Origin: an uncultured Candidatus Peregrinibacteria bacterium
GTDB taxonomy: Bacteria; Patescibacteriota; Gracilibacteria; UBA1369
DNA length: 50,541 bases
Reading direction: 5' to 3'
Assembly (NCBI GenBank): GCA_937858825.1
Contig: CALMAI010000033.1
Location: 1 to 50,541 of the forward strand
Below, piece by piece: positions 22,701-49,449 of this stretch (the first letter of the stretch is position 1; the number at the start of each line of letters is the position of its first letter). A program made the translations under genes and the position numbers. Below the pieces are notes generated by a model. It was not told where the DNA came from. It did not search any database and saw only the letters and a program-made list of their open reading frames with translations.

Positions 22701-23178
22701 CTTTGCACTTATTTATCGTGCAATCATGTTTGTCGATCACGATCACGAAGCCTTCCTCGATACCATCGAATTAAGTATTCCAAAATTGAATATCAATAAC
22801 ATCCCAGTCCAGAGAACAGTGCTCAGCACAACCGCTATCTGGCTCAGAGATATTATTGATAGCACCGGCTTTTACGAAAATCCCCTTCCGGAAAAGAACG
22901 GACAATTGGTTATCTTTGGACATTCATCAAAATATATTTGGGATCCAAACACTTTTGGAACAATTTTCCGCCCATTTATCAACGATCTTAATGTTGGGGA
23001 CACGGTAGAATTGAGCATAGCCCGAACCGTCCACACATACGAAATTACGAACAAGGAAAAAGTACCGGAAGAAAATATCGACAATCTCAAAAATAATACC
23101 AGCGACCTCATTCTGTTTACCTGCGATCTAAACATCACGCAGCGATGGGTCTTTTCAGCAAAGGAGATCACACAATAA
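19750..23178 (+). CDS. beta-helix/GEVED/SLH surface protein with C-terminal sortase-like domain
   Basis: An 1142-aa secreted multidomain protein. Signal peptide at 1-28 (ending PPASAA). A CSLREA-type start (TCNLREAIQAINNG) leads a right-handed beta-helix rich in GGGIY-type turns to about residue 560. A GEVED module follows (about 570-735: DYGDAPDSY, WIDYDSNGAFDAGEQ, GEVEDYQITI). A glycine run and Pro/Glu linker (740-790) come next, then three SLH motifs (about 824, 886, 950: FSDLDINHLYFEP, GVVEGYQDG, PVTRGQLFALIYRA). The last 140 residues resemble a sortase: IELSIPKLNI, VIFGHSS (His1058), LNVGDTV, LILFTC (Cys1125) and QRWVFSA (Arg1132), the complete His-Cys-Arg triad. No transmembrane anchor is present. 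Probably a wall-bound adhesin that carries its own transpeptidase. Confidence 0.88.
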   Translation: MKQLRILQLLIVSLGAVLSLSIAPPASAATLTVNEYTDGAESGNTSGTCNLREAIQAINNGADIAGDCTATGTYGTADEIQFTGTFPQTYTLTWDAGGGTAHPLIVDNDVTITGPGSGSLTIDGNEEAQVFFLGKEYTGTGVTFDLSGITLANGDATVAFGSYGYNAGEGGLIYSQDGGDITLDDVILNSGNSAGGGNIYIGANSTATINDTQIIDGQSLFGGRGGGIYIGTGSEVTITNSIINGNTTASQNGGGIYSDAVLLEIRNSTISNNLTDTNNSDFAQGGGIFSDTQAGSEFILVDSRVFNNFAPTDGGGVLTDADSIFIDGTEVSGNTADASGGGVKIGGSNAVIINSTLSGNHAGSEGGAFNLVGTGFVYFIHSTITANTITNQTRGAGLHFANSGNMHLIGTILAENNTTGDNDDCFTFDTPTITSGGYNLIGVNNGCSAFFTPDGSDIVGTSASPEAANLQALADNDGPDSPTTTPQTHEVTVASTNVWEAIPAATCTNTFTAANYGPGGSVVDTTAHPFGTNVLAEFAAITLQDQRDYPRPGMTDCEIGAFENATLAVYDYGDAPDSYATLTASTGAFHTIDADLLMGTAVDDELDGQPTASADGDDLNGTTPDDEDGVTFSTLAESNSGTADVQIINNTGGNAYLQAWIDYDSNGAFDAGEQVATDVAANASGTISINISPPPGSAGTTYARFRLTPTMGLGSSGDGGIGEVEDYQITINNSDSTVSSGGGGGGGRSTPLQIPQPSEDPPEESPETPQDPEELIEAAIEKVAEAPPRQLVRVKDDLVHTQVWPRTGVDATISSALARVYGATSPFSDLDINHLYFEPTVVLYLQGVVEGYQDGTVQLERHISRVEALKLILYTTESTIFEDNRAIFPDTEEGAWYQPYLNTALYFELIGGYENGNFGPNDDVTFGQAFKMISQILKFTVSEQEQTEQHWAEKYAHELRKRNIIPPELNSNELYDQPVTRGQLFALIYRAIMFVDHDHEAFLDTIELSIPKLNINNIPVQRTVLSTTAIWLRDIIDSTGFYENPLPEKNGQLVIFGHSSKYIWDPNTFGTIFRPFINDLNVGDTVELSIARTVHTYEITNKEKVPEENIDNLKNNTSDLILFTCDLNITQRWVFSAKEITQ

Positions 23179-30233: not shown

Positions 30234-30266
30234 ATAGCGCGCCTAGGCGAAGAAGCGATCCAGACA

Positions 30267-30806
30267 CTATTCAGCTGCATCGTGACGCTGTGAGTCAAAG
30301 TACTCACGGTATTCACGATAAATACTATTAAGCTTTTGAGCCAAGGAGTTGTCTCCATGGCAAAGCTCCTCGACCTTCTCTTCAAAAGTAAAACTACCGG
30401 AGAGCGTTGTTTGAGCCTTTGCATCAAGGAGAGCAAAAACAAATCGATCCACTTCTACCTCGGTTGGACAGTCATATTTGTTCCGGGCCACCTCCTTTTG
30501 ATCTTCAAGCGAAAGCGCATCAAAATCATCTGGATGAGTGTCAATATAGAGAGCTTTAACCTTCTGTAAAAACCGCTCATATGCGACATAAGAAGGCATA
30601 CCATTACGCACCTCCATATCAAGGAGTTGAATAATTGGATCAAGTTTTTGAAAATCATCGAACGTCAGATCATCGACAGATTCAGGAATAAACCTGTCAT
30701 GTTTTGCAACCTCCTGGAGAAAGCTTTGACGCGCATCTTCATTCATATCCTGCCAGTGAGCAACAAAACCTTGCCAGTCCATTGATGAGTGTGAGAGTGA
30801 TTCCAT
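30267..30806 (-). CDS. hypothetical helical protein next to the giant gene
   Basis: A 179-aa acidic, mainly helical cytoplasmic protein (WQDMNEDARQSFLQEVAKHDRF, DDFQKLDPIIQLLDMEV, YVAYERFLQKVKALYI). No signal peptide, membrane segment or known motif. It has its own promoter, TTGATC-17-TATAAT, whose -35 box overlaps the end of the 1894-aa gene. Same strand as the giant gene and immediately downstream, so it may work with it; that is only proximity. Confidence 0.7.
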   Translation of the reverse strand: MESLSHSSMDWQGFVAHWQDMNEDARQSFLQEVAKHDRFIPESVDDLTFDDFQKLDPIIQLLDMEVRNGMPSYVAYERFLQKVKALYIDTHPDDFDALSLEDQKEVARNKYDCPTEVEVDRFVFALLDAKAQTTLSGSFTFEEKVEELCHGDNSLAQKLNSIYREYREYFDSQRHDAAE

Positions 30807-30826
30807 AAGTAGTAGAATGATTTTAT

Positions 30827-30855
30827 ATTATAAATGTAAATGGGGGATAGATCAA
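30827..30855 (-). promoter_or_regulatory. promoter of the 179-aa hypothetical
   Basis: TTGATC (30855-30850), 17-bp spacer, TATAAT (30832-30827) on the minus strand. The -35 overlaps the TGA stop of the giant gene. Confidence 0.72.
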
Positions 30856-33800
30856 GCTGCCTCCTTTTTCTCCGGTTTTTGACTTCCTTCGGATGGTTTT
30901 CCTCCATTTCCTTCTTGTCCACGGTACTCACGAACTTTAAAGAGAGATGCTGGTGGTTCAGATGCCTTCAAACCATCCCTGAATTCGTTGTGTTTTACTT
31001 CAGCCTGCCCTGTGAGTTTCACTTCACCAACTGGTGCCGAACCTTCAGATGGTTTTGAACGCAATTGTGAAGTAGCATCTCGAACAATACCATCTACAGA
31101 AGTTTTACCATTCGGTGAAATTGCATCCCGAACCGTTGTACTCAAAGATCCAAGTTGCCCCTCCATATAAGTCTGATGTTGGGCAAAAGTCATTGGTTGA
31201 CCATCAATTTTTGGGATCGCAGCTGAGTCAAAATAATAAACACGTAGTTGACCACCACCAGATCGGACGACAGCACTGGCGCCAGGGAATTTCGATTTCA
31301 GTTGAAGGGCAAGGGCTGACATAGCGCCATCGGTAACCGCATATCCACGTTGGGCATTAATTGCTCCAGTATTGTGAATATCAAATACAAACTCACGCAT
31401 CATTTGTCGTTCTGGAGGGATTTTTTCTCCCTTTTGATTACGCAACCAGAAATCAGCATCTTCAGCAAACTTCGCCGGCCGGTCTACGCCAGTCTCTGGA
31501 TCACTAAACTTGCGCTGGTTCATAAGAGCAATTGTCTTATCATACTGAGCTTTCAGCTTCAGCAGTTTATCAACCTCCGCACGAGACGGTTTCTCTTGAG
31601 AAGACATCTTATCAATCTGGGCCTTGATCTGAGCAAGCTTTGCCGCTGCTGTCTCTTTCAGCTTAAGAAACTCATTAACTTGTGTAGGTTTTTCATCTTC
31701 AGCAGCTTTCGCATGTTCAGCAGCATCTTCAGGATTAGGTAAATTTCCACTCTCATCAAATGGACTTTTCACCATTTCAATATCAGGAGAACCCTTATTC
31801 TCCTTCGCTTTATGCAGCGCATCTTCCAGAACCTTATCCAGGAAGAACTTCATATCAGTATGATCGAAGTTTCGACCCTTAAAAGATGGTACTTCAACAC
31901 CAGCCATCTGGAAATCCATAAGTGTTACATCCCCAGGATTTTGGCGAATAGCCATAAAGCGTTTCCCAATACTGGATCCATCCACACCAGAAATCGGAGG
32001 AATATCATGAGCATTAACACGACGCAGTGCAAAATAAAGAATGAGCTGTTCCTCAGCTGTTCTATTCTTTTTCTTTAAAATTTTTGCCAACCCATCCTTG
32101 GTCAAAACATCAGCATTACTTCCACGAAGACCTTCTGGAAGAAGATCTTTAAGAGCACCACTCTCGGTAAAAGCATCAAGATTATCACGCAAAACATTGG
32201 TTAACGGCGGAGACCCTTTATCCAAAGCATCAATTTTTTTACTTACAAAATCGGCAAAATTTTTATTGTCACGGAGAGGATCAGCAGAATTATTCGCCTC
32301 TGGATATTCTTTTAAAAACTCAGCCTGCAAACCACGGGCATCACTTCGAAAACCAGCCAAAATTTTGGCATTCCCCATATTTCTCTGATAATCCTGCCAT
32401 GTTCCTTCCAGATTATACTCTTTCTTAAGGGCATTGAATGCCGCCTCTGTTTCAATACCAAAAAATTTCTTCGCCAGTTGATTCTTAATTCGATCCAAAA
32501 CTTGAGGTCCATTCACATCTTTGCCTGGGACAAATTCAGATTTAATAACAGCAGCAAGATCACGAAGATACAGGTCAACAAGATTGGCATCTCCACCCTT
32601 CACTCGAAGCGAGAACTCATTTGAAGGACCCATATTTCCTACATCGCCAAAGTACATTTCAACCTTTCCATCCGCGCCGGCATGGAGAATAACAATCTCA
32701 TCGCCACCATGCTTTACAATAATCGGACCATCTGATTGCAGTTTGGCGTGATCATTTAAATAAGTCGTCATCTCCGGTGAGTAGGCAAAATTCTTTGTCT
32801 TATAATCAGAATGAAGATCCACTTCTTTCATCTGGCCAGGATGATCAGGGTCAGGAATAAGAATCTTACGACTTTCATTAAAAGATGCATGAACAGCAGC
32901 ATCCAACTCTTTGGCATTTATCTCGGCCTTCTCATACTTTGCAACGAGCTGTTCAACCTGTTGCCGCTTCTCCTTTGGCAAATCCATGTCCTCCAATTTT
33001 TTCTTGAATCCATCAATATCAGCTGATGGCTTTGAAGTTTGTGTAGACTTGCTCTTCCTAGTAAGGACTTCAATCCTTTGACGAGTTTTCTGCGGCAATG
33101 CAGCCAGAACCTCGGCCGTAAAACCTTTTACAACCTTGCCATTAATAACCATATTGCCATCTGGAGTAACATGGGCGGAGCGAATAGAATCAGGATCATT
33201 AAATTTGATTCCAAGCTCACTTTCCACTTCTGCAGCAACTTTTTTGTTATAGGCCTCTTCAATCTTATTCCGGCCTTTCCTTGCACCACCCTCAAATTTG
33301 CCATGCGCCCAATGCATACCAGTAGAGGTAATGGCATTTTCAAGCAAAGAACGAAGAACAAAACCTGTATCTACAAAATCTCCGTGTCCCTTCGCATAGA
33401 GACTCGCCGCCTCAATTCCAGTACCAGCAAGACCCGACATAGATTCCATTGCAATCAATGCCTTCATTCCACGGCTTCCGCCCGCCTTAAGAGCGTTTCC
33501 AAAAATCTTGTTTCCAGCTGTTCCAATTCCCCGGAACGCAAGTGCTTTAAAAATACTCTCCACCAAATTCGCCGAAGTAATTGGTGTTGATTGGCCGGTA
33601 ATAATCCCTTCGGCAACAGTACTTCCTCCCAAAAGAAGCGTTCCTTCTACCGTGACACTTAAGGCTCCAGCTCCGACTCGTGACAGAATAATAGCGCGCT
33701 GCATTTGCGGGGTAAGAGCCTTCCAGGCCTGAGATCCAAAGCGGATTGCCTGCACACCACCCTCCTCAATAGCAAGAATTGCTGCTTCAGCTCCCGCAGC

Positions 33801-36536
33801 ACCTGTTCGCACCAACAAACGTGTCGCCAACGAACGAAAAGCCACTTTCCCAAACTGTGCGCCAACCGCACCCGCACCAAATCCAATAGGGAGGGTCGCA
33901 ATCGTCAACGCCAGATTCTCTTTGGCAGCATCTTTAAATTGATCATACTCTTCGGCACTCATGTACTCATAATTCCACGGTTTATACCATGAAGTATCCT
34001 TATCCTCTTCATACGGCGACCAATTATTATAAAGACTCAAAGCTTCAGTAGAATCAGCAAGTCCCTGCCCGGTCATATGGTGCCGCAATTCACGGGAATA
34101 ACGCTTTTGGAGCCACATATTAAAAACAATCTGTTCCGCCTGCTTCCTCAGCTGATCCTCCGGAATATCAGGATTATCTTTTTTAAATTCAGTCAGGTAG
34201 GCAGATGCCGCTTTCCGTACATTATCCATAATCATCTTATCGCCAAGCATTTCCCGCATAATTTTCTCCTGACTCACATCTTTGGCAGCCTTGCGGTACT
34301 CATCTGCAAGAGCTTTGTCCAGATACTCACGGGCTTTGTCATACCCCCGGAGATCACGAAGTTCTTTGGCAAATTTAATGCATGTTTTTTTCCGGACCTC
34401 TGGATCCGTCGAATTCATCCCTTCATAAAGTTCCGAAAATTTATCAATTACATTGTTTTTCGGATCAAAAGCATTCTTCTGCAAATACAAATGAACGCTG
34501 GCTTTCAACTTGGCAAACTCTTCATCATAATCAATCAATTCACCTTTTTGAACCTTGGATTTCAACCCACGAATACCATCAACAATCACATCCACTTCCG
34601 GCCCTGTAATCCTGAAATCGATTTTTTCACCATTCTTACCATATTGATCCTGAAGATCCTTTTTCTTCCAGTACTTCACGTCTTCAAGCAAATCATCCAG
34701 CTGTTTCACCTTGGTTAAACCAATCAAATGAAGCACTTCACGGGCCTGACTGATCTGTTCTTTGTGGAGTTCTTTGTCTCCGCTCCCTTCCGCCCACTTA
34801 ACATAGGCAGCAAGACTTTTCGAAGCTGCATTAATGTCCCCAGCTCCATACTGTTTTAATCCTTCATAAAAATCTCCAGAATATTTTACAAGTCCGATTT
34901 TTTCCTGCGCATCAGCAAGAGCGGCAGAGTTCAGTTCACGTTCTTCAGCAGAGAAGGTTTGACCAACATAAGCTTCGAAAGCTGCCACTGCCTCTGCATG
35001 TTTTCCAACTGCCAAAAGCCGTAAACCTTCAGCATACTTTTTGGATTTCTCTCCCAAAACTTCAGAAATTTGATCAAAATTACCGGTGGATTTTGAAAGT
35101 TCCACCATAGCTTTTTGAGTTTGAGCCTTCACCTCAGCCTGGTCTCTCGCAATAATACTCTCAACAGCCATACGCACCTCCTGTTTTTTATCATCTGAAA
35201 GAGCATCATAGGCTGCGTTGAAAGCATAAATCTTGCCATCCTTTTCCTCCCCCAGAAAAGTGACGTAACTAAAAATATTAGGCCCAACCTCACCAAGTGA
35301 AGCCATGCTCTTTCGTGTCTGACGATTCACCTCAATCTGACGGACCCGATCATCAATCTCTTTAATCTTGGCCTGAACTTTTCCATAAATATCTCCCTGA
35401 AGCTTGTACTGTGTCTCCTTATTTACAAAAGGGGAAACAGTCATCTTAAGCGTTAAATAAGCTGAAAGAAGCGCCTTTTCATTTTTCTCATAATCCTCCA
35501 GCTCCTTATCATTCAAATCAGTACGCCTTGATAAAGGTTCATACTTATCCCACAAAGGGCCGATAGTCTCTTTTTCTGCAGAGGCAATGTCGGCGATCAT
35601 CTTTTCCGCGGCCTTGGTCAAAGCCTCTTTTTCTGCCTCTTCAAAACTCTTTTTCAAATCTTCATAGCTGGATTTGGATTTTTCAAATTCAGTCTCAAGG
35701 TGTTTATACATGTTATTGATGTAGGCGTACGAACCTTCTTCCTTTTCATCAAAAATCTCAGCGTGAGCTTTTACAGGATCAATTTTCTCCGCCTGTGCTT
35801 CAGCCGCCCGGAGAGTTTCCATTGAAGGATTACTTTCAACAGCTTTTACAAGCGTTTCATAGGTACTGACAGACTTAAAAAAATCATTGGCAATAATATG
35901 CCGGGCTGTAGGGCCGAGTGCCAATTCATCTTTTTCCTCACCAATTTTTTTGGCCAGATCCTGATATTTTTTAACAACCTTCTTCGAATATTCACGCGAA
36001 CCAGCGGTACTTATAAACTTTGGACTTAAACGATTCAGATCACCCAACAATTTCTCTTTTGCAGAAAAAATCGTGAGCGGATCTTTTGACCCCTCACTGC
36101 TATTCAATTTCCCATTTGCCTTTTCAACCTTTGGAAGATCATCATTCTCAATCTCCTCCAAAACTTTAAATGCATCGATAGATTTTTTGAGCTGCCCCAG
36201 CTTTTTACTCAGATCACCACTCAATTGTTCCATACTCGGAACCTTTTCAGGTTTTCCCTCCTTGGCATCTTCATGAGCTTTGATAATCTCCCGTCCCCGA
36301 TCCGCCATAGACCCAAGCTGGCCGGCAATCTCTCCAGAAGCTTTTTTCAAATAAGCCTTGGCTTCAGGGGATTTCAATTTTCCCGCAGCCGTTAACATCT
36401 CTGTTTGGCCTGAATCAACAGCATTAACATAGGTACTCCGATACCTTGAAATTTCAGTCTTCGCCACTGCAGGGCCCTTAAGACTTTCAATCTCTTGTTG
36501 CTTCACATCTATTTGTCCGCCAAGTTTTTCGGTCAT
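30852..36536 (-). CDS. giant (1894 aa) helical protein with hydrophobic core block and GGDEF-like segments
   Basis: No signal peptide. Residues 1-about 800 are charged and helical with coiled coils; TPR-like units occur near residues 505-640 (LLAVGKHAEAVAAFEAYVG, YEGLKQYGAGDINAASKSLAAYV). Residues about 870-1100 are a Gly/Ala-rich hydrophobic block (TIATLPIGFGAGAVGAQFG, ILSRVGAGALSVTVEGTLLLGG) that may insert in a membrane. The C-terminal 750 residues include two diguanylate-cyclase-like segments. The first has HGGDEIVIL near residue 1276 and FGDVGNMG near 1297. The second has FVFDIHNTGAINAQRGY near 1717 and RSGGGQLRVYYF near 1758, where GGDEF is replaced by GGGQL, so it is probably inactive. 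The start overlaps the stop of the upstream partner gene (ATGA). Function unknown. Confidence 0.8.
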   Translation of the reverse strand: MTEKLGGQIDVKQQEIESLKGPAVAKTEISRYRSTYVNAVDSGQTEMLTAAGKLKSPEAKAYLKKASGEIAGQLGSMADRGREIIKAHEDAKEGKPEKVPSMEQLSGDLSKKLGQLKKSIDAFKVLEEIENDDLPKVEKANGKLNSSEGSKDPLTIFSAKEKLLGDLNRLSPKFISTAGSREYSKKVVKKYQDLAKKIGEEKDELALGPTARHIIANDFFKSVSTYETLVKAVESNPSMETLRAAEAQAEKIDPVKAHAEIFDEKEEGSYAYINNMYKHLETEFEKSKSSYEDLKKSFEEAEKEALTKAAEKMIADIASAEKETIGPLWDKYEPLSRRTDLNDKELEDYEKNEKALLSAYLTLKMTVSPFVNKETQYKLQGDIYGKVQAKIKEIDDRVRQIEVNRQTRKSMASLGEVGPNIFSYVTFLGEEKDGKIYAFNAAYDALSDDKKQEVRMAVESIIARDQAEVKAQTQKAMVELSKSTGNFDQISEVLGEKSKKYAEGLRLLAVGKHAEAVAAFEAYVGQTFSAEERELNSAALADAQEKIGLVKYSGDFYEGLKQYGAGDINAASKSLAAYVKWAEGSGDKELHKEQISQAREVLHLIGLTKVKQLDDLLEDVKYWKKKDLQDQYGKNGEKIDFRITGPEVDVIVDGIRGLKSKVQKGELIDYDEEFAKLKASVHLYLQKNAFDPKNNVIDKFSELYEGMNSTDPEVRKKTCIKFAKELRDLRGYDKAREYLDKALADEYRKAAKDVSQEKIMREMLGDKMIMDNVRKAASAYLTEFKKDNPDIPEDQLRKQAEQIVFNMWLQKRYSRELRHHMTGQGLADSTEALSLYNNWSPYEEDKDTSWYKPWNYEYMSAEEYDQFKDAAKENLALTIATLPIGFGAGAVGAQFGKVAFRSLATRLLVRTGAAGAEAAILAIEEGGVQAIRFGSQAWKALTPQMQRAIILSRVGAGALSVTVEGTLLLGGSTVAEGIITGQSTPITSANLVESIFKALAFRGIGTAGNKIFGNALKAGGSRGMKALIAMESMSGLAGTGIEAASLYAKGHGDFVDTGFVLRSLLENAITSTGMHWAHGKFEGGARKGRNKIEEAYNKKVAAEVESELGIKFNDPDSIRSAHVTPDGNMVINGKVVKGFTAEVLAALPQKTRQRIEVLTRKSKSTQTSKPSADIDGFKKKLEDMDLPKEKRQQVEQLVAKYEKAEINAKELDAAVHASFNESRKILIPDPDHPGQMKEVDLHSDYKTKNFAYSPEMTTYLNDHAKLQSDGPIIVKHGGDEIVILHAGADGKVEMYFGDVGNMGPSNEFSLRVKGGDANLVDLYLRDLAAVIKSEFVPGKDVNGPQVLDRIKNQLAKKFFGIETEAAFNALKKEYNLEGTWQDYQRNMGNAKILAGFRSDARGLQAEFLKEYPEANNSADPLRDNKNFADFVSKKIDALDKGSPPLTNVLRDNLDAFTESGALKDLLPEGLRGSNADVLTKDGLAKILKKKNRTAEEQLILYFALRRVNAHDIPPISGVDGSSIGKRFMAIRQNPGDVTLMDFQMAGVEVPSFKGRNFDHTDMKFFLDKVLEDALHKAKENKGSPDIEMVKSPFDESGNLPNPEDAAEHAKAAEDEKPTQVNEFLKLKETAAAKLAQIKAQIDKMSSQEKPSRAEVDKLLKLKAQYDKTIALMNQRKFSDPETGVDRPAKFAEDADFWLRNQKGEKIPPERQMMREFVFDIHNTGAINAQRGYAVTDGAMSALALQLKSKFPGASAVVRSGGGQLRVYYFDSAAIPKIDGQPMTFAQHQTYMEGQLGSLSTTVRDAISPNGKTSVDGIVRDATSQLRSKPSEGSAPVGEVKLTGQAEVKHNEFRDGLKASEPPASLFKVREYRGQEGNGGKPSEGSQKPEKKEAA

Positions 36537-36865
36537 GAAAGATCTTCAAGTTGTTGTTCCAGCGCTTCTTCAACACCTTCCTCTTCACTTTTTTCCTCCA
36601 TCGCAAAAGCTTCTGTTTTCATTTTTTTAATCTTGGCTTTCAGTTCCAAGAGATATTTTCGATCTTTATCCTCGGCAAGCGCCGCTTCAATGTATCGATC
36701 CACCGTTTCATTTTTTTCTTGAACAATACGAAACACTTCATCCAACATTGCATTTGGTAAAATTGCAGCATTTTCAATCCAGAATTTTTTTTCATCAGGA
36801 GGGAGCAAAATGCATCGCTTCATCTCATCACGGAGCAGCTGTTCTTTTTTTTCGCGTTGAGACAT
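36533..36865 (-). CDS. small helical protein translationally coupled to the giant gene
   Basis: A 110-aa charged helical protein (MSQREKKEQLLRDEMKRC...; a long helix near IVQEKNETVDRYIEAALAEDKDRKYLLELKAKIKKMK; acidic tail). Its TGA overlaps the ATG of the 1894-aa gene, so the two are almost certainly translated together and may form a complex. No known family. Promoter with TATAAT at 36899-36894 and TGGAAA at 36922-36917, 17-bp spacer. Confidence 0.72.
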   Translation of the reverse strand: MSQREKKEQLLRDEMKRCILLPPDEKKFWIENAAILPNAMLDEVFRIVQEKNETVDRYIEAALAEDKDRKYLLELKAKIKKMKTEAFAMEEKSEEEGVEEALEQQLEDLS

Positions 36866-36893
36866 CAAAATTTAAATTCAATGATATCCAGAA

Positions 36894-36922
36894 ATTATAC
36901 CATTTTTGAGCCATTTTTTCCA
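36894..36922 (-). promoter_or_regulatory. promoter of the giant-protein operon
   Basis: TGGAAA (36922-36917), 17-bp spacer, TATAAT (36899-36894) on the minus strand, giving a leader of about 25 nt before the ATG at 36865. Confidence 0.55.
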
Positions 36923-37013
36923 GATTGAGTATCCAGAAAGATCTTCACAGAAAGCCTTAAAAAAAAGACGATTTTATGGTAAAATAAAGGGATATAGTTC
37001 TCTTTCTGCGTCT

Positions 37014-38762
37014 ATGGACGACAACACACAAAACAATCAGGAACCGCAGCAGGTAGCTCAACAGGGGCAGGCAGTAGCAGCTCCATCAGCATCAGCCGAA
37101 CCGGTTCATCAGACACAGCCAACGGTCTCTCCAGAAGAAAAACTGGGAAAAATTAACCGTGAAGCCAAAGAAAAAGCAGCAGCTCAGCGGGCACGGGAAC
37201 TTGGAATGTCGTACATCAACATTGGAACAACGCCAATCAACCCGGATCTGCTTCATATGATCGATCCGCAAGTCGCGCAAAGCGCACTCATTCTTCCATT
37301 CTACAAACTTGGAAAGAAAGTACGTGTTGCGGTTGCCGATCCGCAAAATCCAGAAACGCTTAAAGTAATTGAAGAGCTAAAGCAGCAGGGATACGCCATT
37401 AACGTAAATCTTGCATCAGATGATGGTCTGCGTGAAGCCATGAAACTCTATGAATCCGAGCAATATGTAGTCAAAAAAGAGATCGAAACCAAGCTCGATG
37501 AAGAGAAAATTAAAGCGTACGAAAAAGAGATCCAGGACCTTCAGTCACTCGAAACAAAACTTCCAACACTCACCTCCGAAGAAGCTGTATACCTCATTAA
37601 CATTGGCGCGCTCAAGACCGGAGCATCAGATATCCACTTTGAACCAGAAGAAGAAGATGTTGAAATGCGCTTTCGTATTGATGGATTACTCCACAGTATT
37701 TTCCGTATCGACAAAACCACTTTCACGAATATTGCCAACCAGATCAAGTACCAGTGTAAAATGAAGCTCAACATTACCAATGAGCCACAAGATGGGCGGT
37801 ATAGCTTTTTGGTCAACGAGCGAAAAGTGGACCTTCGTGTATCCGTTTTGCCAACCCAGTTTGGAGAAACATTTGTCTGTCGACTTTTGGATAGCCAACG
37901 TCATGTGGCCAGCTTTGAAGACATGGGATTCACCGGAAAAGCGCTGGCTCACACCAGACAGATGCTCAATATTAAACATGGAATGATCCTTATTACCGGT
38001 CCAACCGGATCCGGTAAAACCACCACGCTCTACCAACTTCTTGAAAAATTCAGCAACGAAAGCAACAAAACCATCACCCTTGAAGATCCAATTGAATACC
38101 ATCTAAAAGGGATTTCCCAAAGTCAGATCAATGAAAAGCGAGGCTACGATTTTGCAAATGGACTACGCGCCATTCTCCGTCAGGATCCGGACGTCGTAAT
38201 GATTGGAGAAATTCGTGACCTGGAAACAGCCGAAACCGCTGCTCAGGCAGCCCTTACCGGACATGTCCTTCTGAGCACTCTCCACACTAACAGCGCAATC
38301 GAAGCTATTCCCCGACTCATCAATATTGGCCTTCCACCATTCATGGTGGCACCGGCACTCGACACAATCATCGCTCAGCGCCTCGTCCGAAAATTCTGTC
38401 CGGCATGTTCGTATTCAGAAAAAATTTCGGCCGCCAAAAAAGAGGAGCTCCAAAAGAAGCTGGATCTCATTAAAAATATGCAGCCAAGCCTTGAGCTGGA
38501 AATACCGGATGAGCTTCCAACAGCTCCCGGATGTTCGGTTTGCAGCCACACAGGATATAAAGGACGTATTGCCGTAGTAGAGGTTCTGGATGTCGACAAC
38601 GAAATTAAACGGCTTATTCTCGAAAAAGCCAGTTCCACAAAGCTCATTGAAGCAGCCCGAAAGAAGGGGATGATGACCATGTACGAAGACGGAGTTATCA
38701 AAGTAATCCAGGGTCTCACCAGTCTGGCAGAAGTCCACCGCGTCACAGCAATTTCTGTGTAG
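37014..38762 (+). CDS. pilB: type IV pilus assembly / type II secretion ATPase PilB (GspE)
   Basis: A 582-aa hexameric ATPase that powers extension of type IV pili. Start at ATG 37014; the open frame upstream begins at a TTG inside promoter-like sequence (TATAGT at 36993-36998). Gln/Ala/Pro-rich N-terminus, a GspE N-terminal domain (REKAAAQRARELGMSYINI...), then the catalytic domain. Walker A GPTGSGKTT is near residue 329, the Asp box is EDPIEYHL, Walker B is RQDPDVVMIGEIRD, the His box is LSTLHTNSA. A zinc site has two CxxC pairs (CPAC near 461, CSVC near 506). Overlaps dprA by 20 bp at the 3' end. No other pilus genes are visible nearby. Confidence 0.95.
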   Translation: MDDNTQNNQEPQQVAQQGQAVAAPSASAEPVHQTQPTVSPEEKLGKINREAKEKAAAQRARELGMSYINIGTTPINPDLLHMIDPQVAQSALILPFYKLGKKVRVAVADPQNPETLKVIEELKQQGYAINVNLASDDGLREAMKLYESEQYVVKKEIETKLDEEKIKAYEKEIQDLQSLETKLPTLTSEEAVYLINIGALKTGASDIHFEPEEEDVEMRFRIDGLLHSIFRIDKTTFTNIANQIKYQCKMKLNITNEPQDGRYSFLVNERKVDLRVSVLPTQFGETFVCRLLDSQRHVASFEDMGFTGKALAHTRQMLNIKHGMILITGPTGSGKTTTLYQLLEKFSNESNKTITLEDPIEYHLKGISQSQINEKRGYDFANGLRAILRQDPDVVMIGEIRDLETAETAAQAALTGHVLLSTLHTNSAIEAIPRLINIGLPPFMVAPALDTIIAQRLVRKFCPACSYSEKISAAKKEELQKKLDLIKNMQPSLELEIPDELPTAPGCSVCSHTGYKGRIAVVEVLDVDNEIKRLILEKASSTKLIEAARKKGMMTMYEDGVIKVIQGLTSLAEVHRVTAISV

Positions 38763-41818: not shown

Positions 41819-42723
41819 CTATTGATGAAATTTCTCATGAACTTCCTTTAAGCGCTTATTCGTAAGATGCGTATAAATTTGAGTAGTCGTAATCGATGCA
41901 TGTCCCAGCATCTCCTGAACACTCCGAATGTCCGCACCATTAATCAGGAGTTCAGTCGCGAAGGAATGGCGCAAAACGTGCGGCGTCACTTTCTTAATAA
42001 TCCCGGCCTTTCGAGCATAGTTTCGAACCAGATACTGCACCATCACCGTGCTCAGCCGTCTCTTTTCCCCCATCGTAATATTTTCGCTCTGTTTTCCGCG
42101 CCGATAATTCAAAAAAAGAGGATCAAAATTGTCATCCCGAATCGCCAAATAGGACTCAATCGCTTCCGCAGCCCGATCGGACAAAAACACAATCCCTGCT
42201 TTTCTCGGACCATAAACTCCCGTCGTTCCAGATCCACCTGATCACAATTTAAACTCACCAACTCACTTACACGCAAACCGGTTGAATAGAGCGTTTCCAG
42301 AATCGCCCGATCCCGCCGTCCCCGAACAGACTCCGCATCCACAGCATCAAAAAGCCGCTCCAGTTCCTCCCGGCTCAAATACTCAACGGTCCTGTCCTCC
42401 ACTTTTCCCAAATCAATCTTTTCCGGTGACAAGGTATCAATATCGTTCTTCATGCACCACTTCAGGAAAGCCCGCAGCGCAATAACATGATAATTCTGCG
42501 TCTTCATCATCAGCAGTTTTTTTCCTTTTTCATCCTTCAAACGATTCAAATACAGCCGATACTCCTGAACTTTTTTTAAAGAGATCGATCCAACAGAAAT
42601 GTCTCCAGTCCAAGCCAAAAATCTGCCCAAATAATGGCCATAATTTTCGATAGTTTTTTCCGATTGGTTGCGACCGATTTCTGCATGCTGCAAAAACTGG
42701 CCGATAGCATCTTCAAGTTTCAT
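41819..42723 (-). pseudogene. xerC: frameshifted XerC/XerD-type tyrosine recombinase
   Basis: Together the two frames make one complete site-specific recombinase of about 300 aa. The N-terminal core-binding domain and the first part of the catalytic domain are in one frame (MKLEDAIGQFLQHAEIGRNQSEKTI..., STGLRVSELVSL with the first catalytic Arg, ending near ERREFMV). The rest is in another frame ([16 protein letters not shown]..., [26 protein letters not shown] with His, Arg, His and the nucleophilic Tyr). The break lies at about 42200-42212, in the beta-hairpin that carries the catalytic Lys. All other catalytic residues are intact. Leaderless-type promoter: TATAAT 6 nt before the ATG. Could be a recent pseudogene, a sequencing error or recoding. 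Confidence 0.85.
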
Positions 42724-42818: not shown

Positions 42819-44867
42819 ATGAATATATTCGATTTCATCAAAACCAACCGCACAATCGCACTCTACGTTGTACTTGGAATCATAGGGACAGTAGTCGCGA
42901 TTGCAGCTATCTATCTGGGAGGAAATTTGTACCAGGGAAGTTTGATCAGTTCAACACAGTTGAATCAATCACTTCAAAACGTAACGACCAATCAGCCAAG
43001 CCAGATTCAGGTCCAGACAACACCAGCCACAGGTGGACCAATAACGTGTTCCGGTACACCAAATCCGGCAGATCCAAACCAATCTGTCACATGGACAATG
43101 GTCGTGAATGAAGCCATGCTGCAGGAGGAGGATCCATACATTGATATAGAATCATATTTCTGGAGCGGGGATACATCGGGAGGAACAGCAAATTCAGAAA
43201 AAACATTCACTGTTTCATATCCAAACGGTAAAACGACAGCAACAGTAACACCAATTGTAAGCGTTCTTACTGGTCCGGACAATTATGAAGATATAGCCGG
43301 AACACCATGCTCAATCACCATCAATTCAACAACACCATCCAACACCGAAAACCAGACACAAACAGAAAATCCGGCATCACAGGCCACAATCTCTTGTACA
43401 GGATCTCCAAATCCTGGAACCACGGGACAAATTGTTACCTGGACCATCTTCGTCGATGAAGCCAAGCTTATGGAAGAGCAGCCACATAATGGCATAACCA
43501 GTTACTTCTTTTTGGATGAAGATGGCAAAGCCCCTGGGCAGGAATCAGAAAACGGAAAAGTTTTAAAAACTGTCTACCCGGCAGGCACAACATCGGCCAC
43601 GCTCACTCCAGTTGTGAACATTCTGACAGGACAAAATTTCGACACTGGAATTGAAGGAGAGGATTGCTCAATCACACTTGAAGATCCAGCTCCAGAAAAC
43701 GAAAACCAGGAAGAGGAAAACGAAACACAAACAACAGAAGAAACAGAAACCACCACCGAACTTGTCGACACGGAAGAACAGACAACAGAAACGCAAACCG
43801 GAACACTCCCGGCAAAAGACATTCTCACCTGCGCTTTTACACCAAAACCAATCATTCAGGAAAAGAACGAAAGCGCATTGGCAATTTGTGGATTGAACGA
43901 AAGCGCTCTTGTGGAAGCTTACATTATGCCGGCATCATTCACGCCGAGCGAAACAATCGACACTTCAGCAGCAATCACAACCATCCTGCCAAAAACATCA
44001 AAACAGGCAGCACCATTTAATCTGTCCTGGAATGCCCAAAAAGATAAATTCAATCAGCCGGTTGCGGAGGGAACATACACATTCGTTGTCGCAGCCAGGC
44101 CAAACAATCAATACTTACCAGATCTATCAATTCGTGAGTTTACTGTCCTGGCAAAGGAGCCGGAAGTAGAGCCAGAGCCAACTCCACAGCAAGAGCAGAC
44201 TCCGACAGAAACAACACAAACAGAAACCACAGAGCAAGATCAGCAGCCATCACCAACAACGCAAACAAGCGCATGTGAAGGAGTTGACTACCCAAGTGAC
44301 ATTGCCGGACACTGGGCTGAATCAATCATCAAATCAGCCTACGACGCCTGCCTCATCCAGGGTTACGAAGATGGAACCTTCCATCCGGATCAGGCAATTT
44401 CCAGAGCAGAAGCTGTAAAACTTGTCCTTTCACTGGCGGGAATCAGTCCACACCAGGGTTGCTACAGCGCTAACTGTGGAGCCGGTTATCCAAATAACTT
44501 TTTCAACGATATTACCGCAACATGGCAGGGACCATGGGTTCGCGCGGCATGGGATGAAGGAATTGTCGAAGGATACGGGGCAAACGAATTTGGTCCGCAA
44601 TTCGCTATAACACGTGCAGAAGCAACTGCTCTCACTGCACGAACATTCAAGGTCCCGGCACACCAGGGTTGCTACACAACCAACTGTGGAGCCGGACATC
44701 CTGACAATCTTTTTAACGACATCACAGACGCATGGCAGGGACCATGGGTTCGCACAGCCTGGGATAACGGATGGATCAGCGGCACATCAGCCAATCGGTT
44801 CGAACCAAACCGACCAATCACCCGAGCCGAACTCTTAAAAATGGCAAAACTTGCCGCAACCAACTAA
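42819..44867 (+). CDS. SLH-domain surface protein with two tandem Cys-paired beta domains
   Basis: A 682-aa protein with an N-terminal transmembrane/signal-anchor helix (about residues 13-35, IALYVVLGIIGTVVAIAAIYLG). Two homologous beta domains follow (about 75-170 and 190-285). Each starts with a Cys in CSG/CTG-x-PNP and ends with CSIT, and shares TVSYPNGKTTATVTPIVSVLTG / TVYPAGTTSATLTPVVNILTG. A Thr/Glu-rich stalk comes next, a third beta domain, and a second Thr/Gln-rich stalk. Three C-terminal SLH motifs start near residue 490 (AGHWAESIIKSAYDACLIQGY). Between them a Cys-containing insert, HQGCY..NCGAG, occurs twice. The stop is 1 bp before the next gene, the second giant protein, so the two form an operon. 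Confidence 0.88.
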   Translation: MNIFDFIKTNRTIALYVVLGIIGTVVAIAAIYLGGNLYQGSLISSTQLNQSLQNVTTNQPSQIQVQTTPATGGPITCSGTPNPADPNQSVTWTMVVNEAMLQEEDPYIDIESYFWSGDTSGGTANSEKTFTVSYPNGKTTATVTPIVSVLTGPDNYEDIAGTPCSITINSTTPSNTENQTQTENPASQATISCTGSPNPGTTGQIVTWTIFVDEAKLMEEQPHNGITSYFFLDEDGKAPGQESENGKVLKTVYPAGTTSATLTPVVNILTGQNFDTGIEGEDCSITLEDPAPENENQEEENETQTTEETETTTELVDTEEQTTETQTGTLPAKDILTCAFTPKPIIQEKNESALAICGLNESALVEAYIMPASFTPSETIDTSAAITTILPKTSKQAAPFNLSWNAQKDKFNQPVAEGTYTFVVAARPNNQYLPDLSIREFTVLAKEPEVEPEPTPQQEQTPTETTQTETTEQDQQPSPTTQTSACEGVDYPSDIAGHWAESIIKSAYDACLIQGYEDGTFHPDQAISRAEAVKLVLSLAGISPHQGCYSANCGAGYPNNFFNDITATWQGPWVRAAWDEGIVEGYGANEFGPQFAITRAEATALTARTFKVPAHQGCYTTNCGAGHPDNLFNDITDAWQGPWVRTAWDNGWISGTSANRFEPNRPITRAELLKMAKLAATN

Positions 44868-44868
44868 C

Positions 44869-47800
44869 ATGGGAGAAACAGAAAAACACAATCCAAACCA
44901 GGAGCGTCGGCCCCACAATGAGACAGCAATCGAAAAAGCCGAACGTCTTCAAAGAGAGGCTGAAGAGGTTGGCAAAAAGAAAATCATCAGTAAATCCAAG
45001 CGTGAACGGCTCAAGCAACAGGTTGAAAACGTGGACATTCGCGAAGATCACCACTACGAATTGGGCGAATATGATGGCGCAAAACTAGAAAAAAAATTCA
45101 ACGTGGTTGAGGGAAGTGTGGATGCCACTCCATATGGGGCACGCGCAATCACCGAAAAAGTCTATAAAGACAAGTCCGAAGCGGCAGCACTCCTGGTCAA
45201 AATTTATGAAAAAGAGCAGGGAAAGGATCGTTTCACGTCCGCCACGCAGAAACTGATCGAGCAGCATCTGGACATGCTTAAAAAACTAGGGAGTCAAAAA
45301 AAATCTGTTTTTGAAAAAGGAAAAACATCAGAACAACTCTTTAGCTCCGGCGGAATCTATAACTTTGTTCTCGCATTTCAGCGTGCCATGGACGCTTTCC
45401 CTTCTACAGAGAGCTTGGAAAAAAGCGAGTGCATTTTCCATTTAAGTATTGGAGAAACGGTCACAAACAAAGATGAACGATACGTTCGCACTTTTTCCCG
45501 CAAAGAAAAAAAGCCAGAGCCAGGAGAAAAGCCCGACAAGCCAGAAGTACAGCCAGGGAAAAAAGCTGAAACACCAGATGAAGACTACCCGGACGTGAAA
45601 ATCGTCAACGGGGATTACATGATTGCCCACACCGTCTCTTCAAACATCCTTCCAACCACAAACAAGTTAGGTGAAACCATTAATATCGACCTCGACAAAG
45701 AGTCTACAAACGTCATCGACAGCTATACCAGACTTGGCATCATCGCTATGGTTGAAGGACTCAATCGTCTGCCCGAGCAGGCGCGTGGTCCGGTTCTTGA
45801 AAGAGTTTTTCAAAGCATTGGAGAAAAAGATCCAGAAAAAGGATTCCAGTTGATGCAGGAGATCATCAAGAATCAAAAAGCCACTCAGGAAGAGCAGCTT
45901 TTAGAAGGATTAAAAAACAAGATCGAAAACTCACCGGAAAACGAGAAAAAATACTGGCAGGCACAGCTGGCCCTTTACGAAATGAGTCAACTCGACGAAA
46001 ACGGCTATCCAAAACTGGAAGCGTATGAGTCACAACAAAAAATGCGGGAAGCACTGTCTCTACTCGCTGATATCAATGTCGACTCACTCCCGGAAAGCCT
46101 GCAGGAAATGGCAAAAGAGCAGAAGAAATACCTGGAACTTTCTATACGCCACAGCATCGCCACAGACATGATTGCCAGCATGAACATGTCTATCGACATG
46201 ATGATGAAAGAGATGGAAGACTTTGTTGAACTCAAAGCAGAGCGTCGTGCAGACATCAAAGACGACCTGGACAATATGTGGGACAGCGACGAAGAGGTCT
46301 ACATGGCAGCAAAACATGTCATGGAAGGACTCCGTCTCCTTATTAGATACCAATATCCAATCGACGCAGAAACACAGAGCATCACCAATCCGGTGAAGTA
46401 CTACTACGACAAACTCATGAAGGGAGAGATCACGTCTATCGACATCCCGGAAGGCCAAACAGCAGTCATGACAGACGTTTTGAAAGATCATCCCACAACC
46501 ATCAAAGGTCCGGGAAAAATTGATCTCAACGAACTCTTTGTCGATAGACAGGAAGAAGCGCGCCTTTTTGAAGAGTATCAGAGCGGAAAAGAGCGCCTTG
46601 GGGAAAAAGGCATTTGGGCTTTGGCAAAAGACACTCGGGACAGTGTCTACGATACCATTGTTCCAGAAAGTATTCGTGAATATTCAAACTGGATTATTGG
46701 TGGAGTCGCAGGCGCATCAATGCCATGGATGATTCCAAGCGTTATTGCCGGAGGAGCTTTGCCGGAATACTTCGGTGGAGAACGCAGCAGCTTTATGGAA
46801 AAGCAGTCCAAAGGAGGAATCCTGCAAAGATCATCAGAAATTTTCCCAGAAAACGGTGACCTTGCCGCATTCCTTAATGAAAATCCAGGTGGAAACGCAA
46901 AAGATATTGAAAATCTTGGCGCCGTCGAAAAAATGCAGATCGAAAAAATACGACACATGTTTATAAGCGGACAGTTCTACGAAGCCCGCGCACTTTGCAT
47001 CCAGATTCTCCAAAAAAGGTTGGATGAGAAAAAGAAATTCCGCATGGAAAAAGTGGATACCACAACGCCGGAATTCCGTGAACTTATAGAAGATCATGGT
47101 GAACAAATTAAGGCACAGGCCAAGCTCCAGCTATTAGAACAGGGAATCGACGAGTCCAACTTTGCCGAACAGAACATTCCAAAACCAGGCGGCGGATCGT
47201 ACGCAAATCTGGACGAATTCATTGAAGAAAAAATGATGGATGCTCTGAAAGGGCGAGCTTACATCGACGAACAAGGTATTAACGCAAGCCACTTCACCGA
47301 TGAAGAAGTTTCAAATTTCAGCGGTTATGAAAAAAAAGCACTCGAACTTCTCAACGATTTGAATGGGGAAGGAGCCTTTGATCTAGCCGAGGAAAATGCG
47401 ATCATCGCCAAAGAGATTACGCAGCTGGTGGTTGAAATCGCTATCATCGAACTCGCGACCTGGGGTGCCGGTACGTATGCCGCGGCCGCCCTTGCCGCTG
47501 CCCGCCTTGGACAAATGGGTGTACGCGCTATGGAAGTTGCCAACATGGTTGCCAGAGCATCAGAAGTCGCGGCAAAAGTCCCACGTCTTGCATCAGCCGG
47601 AAAAACCATTGCTCACGCAACACTTTTTGTACAGGCACAAGCCACCATGCACGGCAATGCGGGAATTTTGGGAACATCAGAAGGATGGAGACAAGTCGGA
47701 TACACTGCCGCAACATTTGGCATGATGAAAGGCGTACAAGGCCTCGCTCGGGGAACAGCAGAAGGAATGGTCCGCACTGTCGAAGAAGGAGCGACTGGAT

Positions 47801-49449
47801 TTCAACGACTCCGTCACCCACTTCAACAATTGCAATACCTTAACCGTACTGCCCGCGCGAGCGGAAAATTAGGAACTGCCGGAGCAGAAGTAGCAGAAGG
47901 ATTTGTCGAAATCGGAGCTCTCCAGGGAATGTCTCAGTTGGAACAGGAGCTCGCTATCATCTACAACGAATGGACCGGTGACAAAAAAGGAGAACTGGCT
48001 GCCCGCGCCCGCGATACCAAATTCTGGGACTGGAAAGAACTTGCTCATACTGCAGCCGTCGTAATATCTCTTCGTGGTGGACGCCTGGCTGGTGAATTGA
48101 GTGGAACCAAACTAGCATCACAGAAATTTAACGGAGTAGAAAATCCAAACCAAATGGTCTCCATTGGAAAAAAACATTTCTTCCAGGGAGAGGTTATTGA
48201 TCTCAAACCAACAACCAGTGCCCAGGTTATTGGTATAGAAAAAGTTGAACTCGCACCGGATAGGATCGGAACTCGTTTACGAGTCCGTCTCTCTGATGGA
48301 ACCGAAAAAGTCGTAAAATCTGGTGATGTTGTAACCGAAAGCACAACTGGAGATATCAAATTTGGAAAACGTGCTTTCAATGCCAACGACATAGTTGAAA
48401 TTAAGAGCAACCTACCAGCGCAGGGAAAAGTGGTGGGAGTGGAAACAATCGAAACTTCCCCAAGTACATGGTTAACACGTTTCAAAGTAGAGCTTCCAGG
48501 CGGAGAAGTAGTCACAGTAAAATACGCCGACGTCATCGCACCTCCCAAAAAAGGGCCAGGAAAAATTCGCCAGTACTTATCGGAAAGAGCTGATAGATTA
48601 GGGCAAAAAATTAGCAGTGCAAAAGAGACAATTGGAGAAAAATCCAAAAGTGCCAAGCAAAGAGTAGTCGAACAATACGGAAAATTTAAAGAAATAGTCC
48701 AAAAACGATCCTTCCTCAAAAACGTGAAGGAACAACTGAAAATATCAGAAAAGGCGCAAAAAGGAGCAGAGAAAGAGTTGCAAGAGCTCAAAGATGCTAT
48801 TCAAAATGAGCAAAAAATTGATGTGGCCAAACAGGTAGAATCAATTCGCCAAAAAGCTGAAGATGCAAAGATGTCAGCGGATGCAGCAAAAGTTATGTCA
48901 GATTTAGCGCTTGCAAAAGGTGTTGCTGAGTTTAAAGGTGTTGAACTCACCGAAGCATTCCAGCCATCAATGAGCGATGCAAAAGCGGCACTTAAAGCAG
49001 AAAAAGCTGGAGAACTAAAAGGAGTGCACATGAAAGAAACATCGGATCGATATAAACAAGCCAGAAAAGCTGCAGAAAAAGCAGAAAAAGCTGCGCAGGA
49101 AGCAGAGCAAATCGGCTTAAGGTCAGTTGTGTCCGAAGTTGGTGATGCCGCTCTCAAAAAAGCTGACAGGGTTGGAAAAATCCGCACAGAAATCGAGGAG
49201 GCTATAAAAGAAAAAGATTTAGAAACAGCGAAATCAAAGCTCGAAGAAATGAAAGAAATTCATGATCAGGTCAAAGAAGATACTCTCGATGTCATGTATG
49301 CGGCTGACCAGGTGCCAACATCAGATGCTTTCAAAAAGATAAAAAAACAGGTTGTGAATGCCCGGGCTCAGGCAACCTTAGACGTGGAAGCTGCGGAAAA
49401 AGCCATAAATGGCAATCAGCCAAGTCGGTTAAGAATTGCAACCGACTAA
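44869..49449 (+). CDS. second giant (1526 aa) helical protein with hydrophobic block and repeated beta modules
   Basis: Starts at ATG 44869, one base after the SLH gene stop; a TTG start 18 nt upstream is possible. No signal peptide. Residues 1-about 600 are charged and helical. A hydrophobic stretch (WIIGGVAGASMPWMIPSVIAGGALP) lies near residue 608. Residues about 855-1090 form a Gly/Ala-rich hydrophobic block (IELATWGAGTYAAAALAAARLG, GLARGTAEGMVRTVEEGA). Two copies of a roughly 60-residue beta module follow at about 1095-1225 (HFFQGEVIDLKPTTSAQVIG and AFNANDIVEIKSNLPAQGKV). The C-terminal 300 residues are Lys/Glu/Ala-rich coiled coil. The overall plan resembles the other giant protein. No enzyme motif recognised; function unknown. 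Confidence 0.78.
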   Translation: MGETEKHNPNQERRPHNETAIEKAERLQREAEEVGKKKIISKSKRERLKQQVENVDIREDHHYELGEYDGAKLEKKFNVVEGSVDATPYGARAITEKVYKDKSEAAALLVKIYEKEQGKDRFTSATQKLIEQHLDMLKKLGSQKKSVFEKGKTSEQLFSSGGIYNFVLAFQRAMDAFPSTESLEKSECIFHLSIGETVTNKDERYVRTFSRKEKKPEPGEKPDKPEVQPGKKAETPDEDYPDVKIVNGDYMIAHTVSSNILPTTNKLGETINIDLDKESTNVIDSYTRLGIIAMVEGLNRLPEQARGPVLERVFQSIGEKDPEKGFQLMQEIIKNQKATQEEQLLEGLKNKIENSPENEKKYWQAQLALYEMSQLDENGYPKLEAYESQQKMREALSLLADINVDSLPESLQEMAKEQKKYLELSIRHSIATDMIASMNMSIDMMMKEMEDFVELKAERRADIKDDLDNMWDSDEEVYMAAKHVMEGLRLLIRYQYPIDAETQSITNPVKYYYDKLMKGEITSIDIPEGQTAVMTDVLKDHPTTIKGPGKIDLNELFVDRQEEARLFEEYQSGKERLGEKGIWALAKDTRDSVYDTIVPESIREYSNWIIGGVAGASMPWMIPSVIAGGALPEYFGGERSSFMEKQSKGGILQRSSEIFPENGDLAAFLNENPGGNAKDIENLGAVEKMQIEKIRHMFISGQFYEARALCIQILQKRLDEKKKFRMEKVDTTTPEFRELIEDHGEQIKAQAKLQLLEQGIDESNFAEQNIPKPGGGSYANLDEFIEEKMMDALKGRAYIDEQGINASHFTDEEVSNFSGYEKKALELLNDLNGEGAFDLAEENAIIAKEITQLVVEIAIIELATWGAGTYAAAALAAARLGQMGVRAMEVANMVARASEVAAKVPRLASAGKTIAHATLFVQAQATMHGNAGILGTSEGWRQVGYTAATFGMMKGVQGLARGTAEGMVRTVEEGATGFQRLRHPLQQLQYLNRTARASGKLGTAGAEVAEGFVEIGALQGMSQLEQELAIIYNEWTGDKKGELAARARDTKFWDWKELAHTAAVVISLRGGRLAGELSGTKLASQKFNGVENPNQMVSIGKKHFFQGEVIDLKPTTSAQVIGIEKVELAPDRIGTRLRVRLSDGTEKVVKSGDVVTESTTGDIKFGKRAFNANDIVEIKSNLPAQGKVVGVETIETSPSTWLTRFKVELPGGEVVTVKYADVIAPPKKGPGKIRQYLSERADRLGQKISSAKETIGEKSKSAKQRVVEQYGKFKEIVQKRSFLKNVKEQLKISEKAQKGAEKELQELKDAIQNEQKIDVAKQVESIRQKAEDAKMSADAAKVMSDLALAKGVAEFKGVELTEAFQPSMSDAKAALKAEKAGELKGVHMKETSDRYKQARKAAEKAEKAAQEAEQIGLRSVVSEVGDAALKKADRVGKIRTEIEEAIKEKDLETAKSKLEEMKEIHDQVKEDTLDVMYAADQVPTSDAFKKIKKQVVNARAQATLDVEAAEKAINGNQPSRLRIATD

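What the first reader, a model, noticed from the sequence alone, without database searches (positions are those of the whole stretch)
44869..49449. Two giant proteins share an architecture not tied to any known family
The 1526-aa and 1894-aa proteins both lack signal peptides. Both have a long charged helical N-terminal half, a central Gly/Ala-rich hydrophobic block of about 230 residues, and a mixed C-terminal part. Both are in two-gene operons with almost no spacing (1 bp or ATGA). The hydrophobic blocks resemble glycine-zipper membrane-inserting regions seen in some toxins and large secreted effectors. They could form a contact-dependent, host-attachment or membrane-remodelling system in an episymbiont.
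Basis: inference. Interest (0 to 1): 0.75.

Follow-up and report, generated by a model that had tools for sequence, protein, structure and literature searches.

The report
Giant proteins with swappable C-terminal tails
Two very large proteins of a tiny uncultured bacterium share a layout of a constant front part, a glycine/alanine-rich middle and a changeable end, and in a sister species sequence has been exchanged right behind that middle in both, which looks like a modular signalling or effector system.

Summary
A (1526 aa, 44869-49449 +) and B (1894 aa, 30852-36536 -) both have a charged trunk, a Gly/Ala-rich block (A 836-1078, B 846-1092) and a mixed C-terminal part. Direct homology between them is not detectable (blocks 0.8%); a giant of another genus is a weak bridge.

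The main result is new. Against a congener (G001), B's DNA is 94% identical up to residue ~1095, the block's end, and then unmatched until the next gene: C-terminus and downstream gene are replaced together. A shows an exchanged segment (residues 1082-1219) starting at the same point. B's C-terminus is a pair of degenerate GGDEF-like domains in the window and a protein kinase in G001; other relatives have a metallophosphatase, or all three. A further giant family shows the same junction (GGDEF pair versus kinase). A ~200-aa partner gene lies directly behind a kinase-module gene in 15 of 16 testable cases.

Best reading: accessory giant 'chassis' proteins whose C-terminal module is exchanged by recombination behind the block. 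Whether they act inside the cell or in a host is open. The layout works like polymorphic toxins, but tested defining features of that family are not met. Both AlphaFold models were unusable.

The parts
44869..49449 (+). Giant protein A, 1526 aa
   Evidence: congener 93% identical; no Pfam family up to E 10
44869..47373 (+). A trunk (res 1-835), charged and helical, constant
   Evidence: 92% identical ortholog overall; res ~200-835 conserved in relatives
47374..48102 (+). A Gly/Ala-rich block (res 836-1078)
   Evidence: profile A3 found in 10 of 89 genomes of the order
48113..48524 (+). A exchanged segment (res ~1082-1219), two SH3-like repeats (by eye)
   Evidence: no nucleotide match to the congener here, 97% before and after
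48525..49446 (+). A C-terminal coiled-coil part, constant within the genus only
   Evidence: not shared with other genera
42819..44867 (+). Operon partner of A: membrane protein with three SLH domains, 682 aa
   Evidence: PF00395 5e-26; seen upstream of A only in the congener
30852..36536 (-). Giant protein B, 1894 aa
34002..36536 (-). B trunk (res 1-845), constant
   Evidence: 56-60 of 60 residues identical per window in the congener
33261..34001 (-). B Gly/Ala-rich block (res 846-1092)
   Evidence: profile A4 in 6 of 89 genomes of the order
30238..33249 (-). B exchanged segment: C-terminus from res ~1096 plus the downstream gene
   Evidence: no nucleotide match to the congener; 93.9% and 91.9% identity on the two sides
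32502..32789 (-). First GGDEF-like element, permuted order (GGDEI hairpin before the DVGNMG strand)
   Evidence: hhalign 91% to a G090 giant
31167..31559 (-). Second GGDEF-like domain, degenerate (GGGQL)
   Evidence: TIGR00254 0.036, PF00990 0.091, hhalign 94.6% to GGDEF set
36533..36868 (-). Conserved 111-aa gene upstream of B (ATGA overlap)
   Evidence: homologues next to B in G001, G002, G005 (two contigs), G012
30267..30806 (-). 179-aa gene behind B, part of the exchanged segment
   Evidence: weak homologues by B in G002 and G012 (E 2e-5, 5e-5)

Best explanation
A and B are members of a class of accessory giant proteins. Each has a constant helical trunk, then a Gly/Ala-rich block, then a changeable C-terminal part. 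Recombination just behind the block replaces that part, in B together with the neighbouring gene. In B, in the C and F giants and in E, the modules come from one signalling toolkit: protein kinase (with a dedicated ~200-aa partner), calcineurin-like phosphatase, GGDEF-like domains. In A, relatives carry a GT2-like or LRR module. Shown: layout, junctions, replacement, homology of the modules in relatives, the kinase-partner link. Inferred: the trunk is a scaffold or sensor, the block a membrane-associating hinge, the module the output; changing the module changes what the protein signals. I think action inside or at the envelope of the producing cell slightly more likely than delivery into a host.
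For: Junction at the block end in both giants in the same species pair. B similarity to relatives with other C-termini stops at 1074-1093. C family: G009 and G010 giants match over residues 16-803 (E 1e-188) and then carry GGDEF x2 or a kinase; their hydrophobic segments end at 819 and 794. The ~75 residues behind B's junction are far more diverged than the trunk (20 of 60 identical at 1111-1170, against 56-60 of 60), so a diverged B allele was the likely donor, not just a deletion. G008 carries GGDEF-like, phosphatase and kinase in one protein. Partner gene directly behind a kinase-module gene in 15 of 16 testable of 18 hits. A giant lies between the NusA-like gene and pilB in 4 of 11 testable of 13 genomes, none in the other 7.
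Against: A's exchanged piece is a short internal segment, not the whole tail, and is not an enzyme. The GGDEF assignment in the window is weak by single-sequence HMM. Blocks of A, B, C, D and E do not match each other except C-D (95%). For A, similarity to three relatives stops inside the block in pairwise search, and the D pair also stops inside the block. No model of the fold. Direction of exchange unknown; only one close species pair in the data.
Confidence: 0.6

Rival explanations
1. Delivered effectors: the giants are exported at host contact, the block helps the C-terminal module cross the host membrane, and the module (kinase, phosphatase, glycosyltransferase-like, LRR) rewires the host; small neighbour genes protect or chaperone.
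For: Constant front, variable end and sharp junction, with the neighbouring gene replaced in the same segment. A candidate orphan module in G046: A's GT2-like end is 89.4% identical over 1286 bp to the next gene, which continues into a kinase. Patchy insertion. LRR end in G088.
Against: No secretion signal or known trafficking domain. The kinase-partner pair also exists stand-alone (~580-610 aa) in the own genome and five others, which speaks for a cell-internal role and against an immunity gene. Block only marginally hydrophobic.
Confidence: 0.28
2. c-di-GMP or kinase control of the adjacent type IV pilus: B acts on the divergently transcribed PilB.
For: PilB (36906-38762) has an MshEN-type domain (PF05157 1.5e-9) and B has GGDEF-like domains; a GGDEF giant sits at the same place in G009.
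Against: None of 6 PilB proteins tested has even the relaxed c-di-GMP motif of PMC5013675. B lies elsewhere in G002 and G005, and no giant lies between the NusA-like gene and pilB in 7 of 11 testable genomes. B's GGDEF motif is degenerate; no other GGDEF was found in the own genome.
Confidence: 0.07
3. Ordinary differential domain loss from a long ancestor (trunk, GGDEF, phosphatase, kinase), without module exchange.
For: G008 has all three modules.
Against: The spacer behind the junction is far more diverged than the trunk, and the downstream genes are different families.
Confidence: 0.1

Closest known systems
Polymorphic toxins (CdiA, Rhs)
   Same: Constant front, sharp conserved junction, variable C-terminus exchanged together with the next gene, possible orphan modules downstream (passages of PMC3150448 read)
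   Different: No trafficking domain, no known toxin domain, modules are signalling enzymes; the kinase partner gene also accompanies stand-alone kinases
GGDEF (diguanylate cyclase) domains, PF00990/TIGR00254
   Same: Second domain of B aligns in register to canonical GGDEF, starting at the DPxTG element
   Different: GGGQL instead of GG(D/E)EF; first element has the strand order permuted; a long stretch lies between the two
Bacterial protein kinases PF00069
   Same: C-terminus of the congener and of other giants
   Different: Fused behind a giant trunk and tied to a ~200-aa partner without a Pfam family; absent from B of the window
Glycine-zipper membrane-inserting toxins (recalled)
   Same: Gly/Ala-rich block before the C-terminal part
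   Different: No zipper enrichment in B, marginal hydropathy

Membership tests
Polymorphic toxin systems | Constant N-terminus with abrupt junction to a variable C-terminus | tested here: met
   B; A for an internal segment; C family
Polymorphic toxin systems | Variable part exchanged together with an adjacent small gene | tested here: met
   B: window 30238-33249 unmatched as one block; not so for A
Polymorphic toxin systems | Secretion or trafficking domain in the constant part | tested here: not met
   no convincing Pfam or NCBIfam hit in the trunks
Polymorphic toxin systems | C-terminus is a toxin domain | tested here: not met
   kinase, phosphatase, GGDEF-like; no toxin family among convincing hits
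Polymorphic toxin systems | Small gene confers immunity | not testable with these tools
   partner also follows stand-alone kinases, which argues against
Diguanylate cyclase (GGDEF) | Homology over the GGDEF fold | tested here: inconclusive
   E 0.03-0.09 by HMM; 94.6%, E 6.5e-8 by profile comparison; model failed
Diguanylate cyclase (GGDEF) | Intact GG(D/E)EF active-site motif | tested here: not met
   second domain GGGQL; first element GGDEI in permuted order
Glycine-zipper membrane inserter | Enriched GxxxG repeats and membrane-like hydropathy in the block | tested here: not met
   B no enrichment; A GxxxG 7 against 3.1 expected; hydropathy marginal
A and B blocks as one family | Detectable profile homology | tested here: inconclusive
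   direct 0.8%; via G010F 67% to A (score above all 100 shuffles) and 27.7% to B; adding G010F to B's profile gives only 1.1%

The most novel reading that the evidence does not exclude
A host-directed polymorphic effector system of Patescibacteria: giant chassis proteins deliver, behind a Gly/Ala-rich block, interchangeable signalling enzymes (kinase, phosphatase, GGDEF-like, glycosyltransferase-like) into the host cell, and species retarget by swapping the module and its partner gene in one recombination step.
Probability: 0.22. Interest if true: 0.88.

Novelty: new variant of a known kind. Interest (0 to 1): 0.62.

Why it matters
How Patescibacteria act on their hosts at the molecular level is largely open (recalled). 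A class of giant proteins with a fixed exchange point and enzyme modules gives concrete, testable candidates, and a rule for finding more: look behind the end of the Gly/Ala block. Even if the proteins only act inside the cell, module exchange with a co-moving partner gene in a genome of about 1.3 Mb would be an unusual way to evolve signalling.

Tried and rejected
Direct A-B homology: BLASTP nothing (E 1.0), hhalign blocks 0.8%. Further copies of A or B in the own genome: none (blocks single-copy). AlphaFold2 for B 830-1894 (3 rows) and A 400-1526 (single sequence): pLDDT 40.5 and 41.6, not used, no fold search run. PDB profile search of the GGDEF pair: only weak GGDEF hits (E 0.06-0.44) below an unrelated ATP synthase hit at 0.024. 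Phages (B), plasmids (A), viral contigs (block of B, trunk of A): no relatives. PADLOC: none for 4 proteins. PilB/c-di-GMP link: motif absent. Linking the 179-aa type to GGDEF: rests on three genes (window, G002, G012), and a G012 contig with phosphatase and kinase (L103) probably belongs to that B, so I do not claim it. One exception to the kinase link: G011 L049 has a phosphatase and no kinase-module hit. Literature searches: (listings only), plus passages of PMC5013675, PMC3150448 and PMC9938205. Nothing on these giants was in those listings; that is not proof that nothing is in print.

Full report
OBSERVATION. A (44869-49449 +, 1526 aa) and B (30852-36536 -, 1894 aa) are intact ORFs with the described layout. 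The blocks are A 836-1078 and B 846-1092; an unbiased maximal-hydropathy scan gives A 844-1031 (5 of 200 shuffles as high) and B 875-1074 (0 of 200). They are Gly/Ala-rich but only marginally hydrophobic, and B shows no glycine-zipper enrichment. The window lies in a 1.32-Mb, 46-contig genome, 96% complete.

DISTRIBUTION. A matches in 10 of 58 other genomes searched, B in 8 of 58; some of these are partial or single-domain matches. The A block profile is in 10 of 89 genomes of the order and the B block in 6 of 89, own genome included. The A trunk is in 8 of 288 genomes of the class, all in the own order. No paralogue in the own genome. So neither is universal: they are accessory.

EXCHANGE BEHIND THE BLOCK. 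The congener G001 is collinear with the window over the part compared. B is 93.9% identical in DNA up to window 33250 (residue ~1095, three residues behind the block); then 30238-33249, which is the C-terminus plus the 179-aa gene, has no nucleotide match, and identity (91.9%) resumes at 30237. A is 97% identical up to 48112 (residue 1081, three behind the block), unmatched to 48524 (residue 1219), and 96.7% from 48525. Just behind B's junction about 75 residues are still homologous but much more diverged than the trunk (20 of 60 identical at 1111-1170), so a diverged B allele is the likely donor. In more distant relatives B similarity stops at 1074-1093 where C-termini differ; for A it stops at 1057 or 1072 in four relatives and earlier (884-992) in three.

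MODULES. B of the window ends in two GGDEF-like elements. The second is supported by TIGR00254 (0.036), PF00990 (0.091; 0.029) and a profile comparison with four GGDEF sequences (94.6%, E 6.5e-8), but its motif is GGGQL. In the first the GGDEI hairpin precedes the DVGNMG strand, as in a giant of G090 (91%). G001 has a kinase-like end (PF00069 9e-6), G008 GGDEF-like plus metallophosphatase (0.003) plus kinase (7e-9), G011 metallophosphatase (2e-7), and G004 a kinase-like module (5.7e-38 to that of a G010 giant; no Pfam hit on its own). At the same genomic place, G009 and G010 carry another giant (family C), alike over residues 16-803 and then GGDEF x2 (5.6e-15) or kinase (5e-4). Further giants with a block and such an end: G010 (D, kinase 7e-4), G090 (E, GGDEF 1e-5), G010F (kinase module 4e-13). 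In A relatives the ends are GT2-like (G046, PF13641 0.011) or LRR (G088, 3.7e-11); the other six of the seven A relatives scanned gave no convincing family. In G046 the GT2-like end is 89.4% identical over 1286 bp to the next gene, which continues into a kinase (4.6e-15): a candidate orphan module.

SMALL GENES. A 111-aa gene precedes B in G000, G001, G002, G005 (two contigs) and G012. A ~200-aa family has 18 hits in 13 genomes of the family. Sixteen have a readable upstream neighbour: 15 follow a kinase-module gene directly (one, in G007, only at E 7e-4) and one follows the phosphatase-bearing B of G011; two lie at contig ends. The profile was built from seven of these 18, six of them known kinase neighbours; of the other eleven, nine are testable and all nine follow a kinase-module gene. 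The kinase-module profile was itself built from seven of the proteins found. From the other side, PF00069 has 12 hits in the 13 genomes; one ends at a contig end, and 9 of the other 11 have the small gene directly downstream; the two without are kinases of 473 aa (G003) and 292 aa (G007). The pair also occurs stand-alone, including in the own genome (G000:C27, 578 and 193 aa), which argues against a pure immunity role.

INSERTION. The NusA-like gene (named by eye) was found in 13 of 13 family genomes. No giant lies between it and pilB in 7 of 11 testable (G002, G003, G005, G007, G008; G004 and G012 judged from a PilB-like fragment at a contig end); a giant does in G000, G001, G009, G010; the contigs of G006 and G011 end there.

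ARE A AND B RELATED? Direct block comparison fails (0.8%); full-length profiles give 35 columns at 37.7% at the block start. The G010F block matches the A block at 67% (score 37.7; best of 100 shuffles 29.5) and the B block at 27.7% over 189 columns, but adding it to B's profile leaves the A match at 1.1%. I treat this as a lead.

MECHANISM AND COMPARISON. Shown: chassis, junction, replacement, module identity in relatives, kinase-partner link. Inferred: output function, role of the block, place of action. In layout it works like CdiA and Rhs proteins, whose ends are exchanged with their neighbour gene from a fixed junction (passages of PMC3150448), but no trafficking or toxin domain was found, so it is not filed there. 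A link to pilus control through c-di-GMP is unlikely: six PilB proteins lack the motif given in PMC5013675.

LIMITS. One close species pair; MAG-like fragmented assemblies; both structure models failed; the SH3-like, NusA, NrdR and recombinase labels are by eye.

Noticed in passing
window 41819-42723: A tyrosine-recombinase-like gene (by eye) is split into two overlapping ORFs (204 and 123 aa) while the congener has one intact 304-aa ORF: frameshift or sequence error.
   Followed up: partly
window 32502-32789; L110 (G090 giant): GGDEF-like element with the GGDE hairpin before the DxxNxG strand, i.e. apparently circularly permuted; G090 has an intact GGDEF motif in that order.
   Followed up: partly
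window 36906-38762: PilB with an MshEN-type domain that lacks the known c-di-GMP-binding motif.
   Followed up: yes
L105:3631-5975 (own genome, contig C27): Stand-alone kinase (578 aa) with its ~200-aa partner gene, a pair also found in five other genomes of the family.
   Followed up: partly
window 19750-23178: 1142-aa surface protein whose end looks (by eye) like a sortase domain fused behind SLH-like repeats; not tested.
   Followed up: no
window 10852-13398: 848-aa protein that looks like arginyl-tRNA synthetase with a long N-terminal extension (by eye); not tested.
   Followed up: no
L046:6516-14446 (G009): Two adjacent giants (1235 and 1162 aa) share a domain with the N-terminus of A and of the G026 giant: domain shuffling also at the front end.
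   Followed up: partly
L141:3-536 (G005:C86): Copy of the ~200-aa partner gene at a contig start; the match reads through one in-frame TAA.
   Followed up: no
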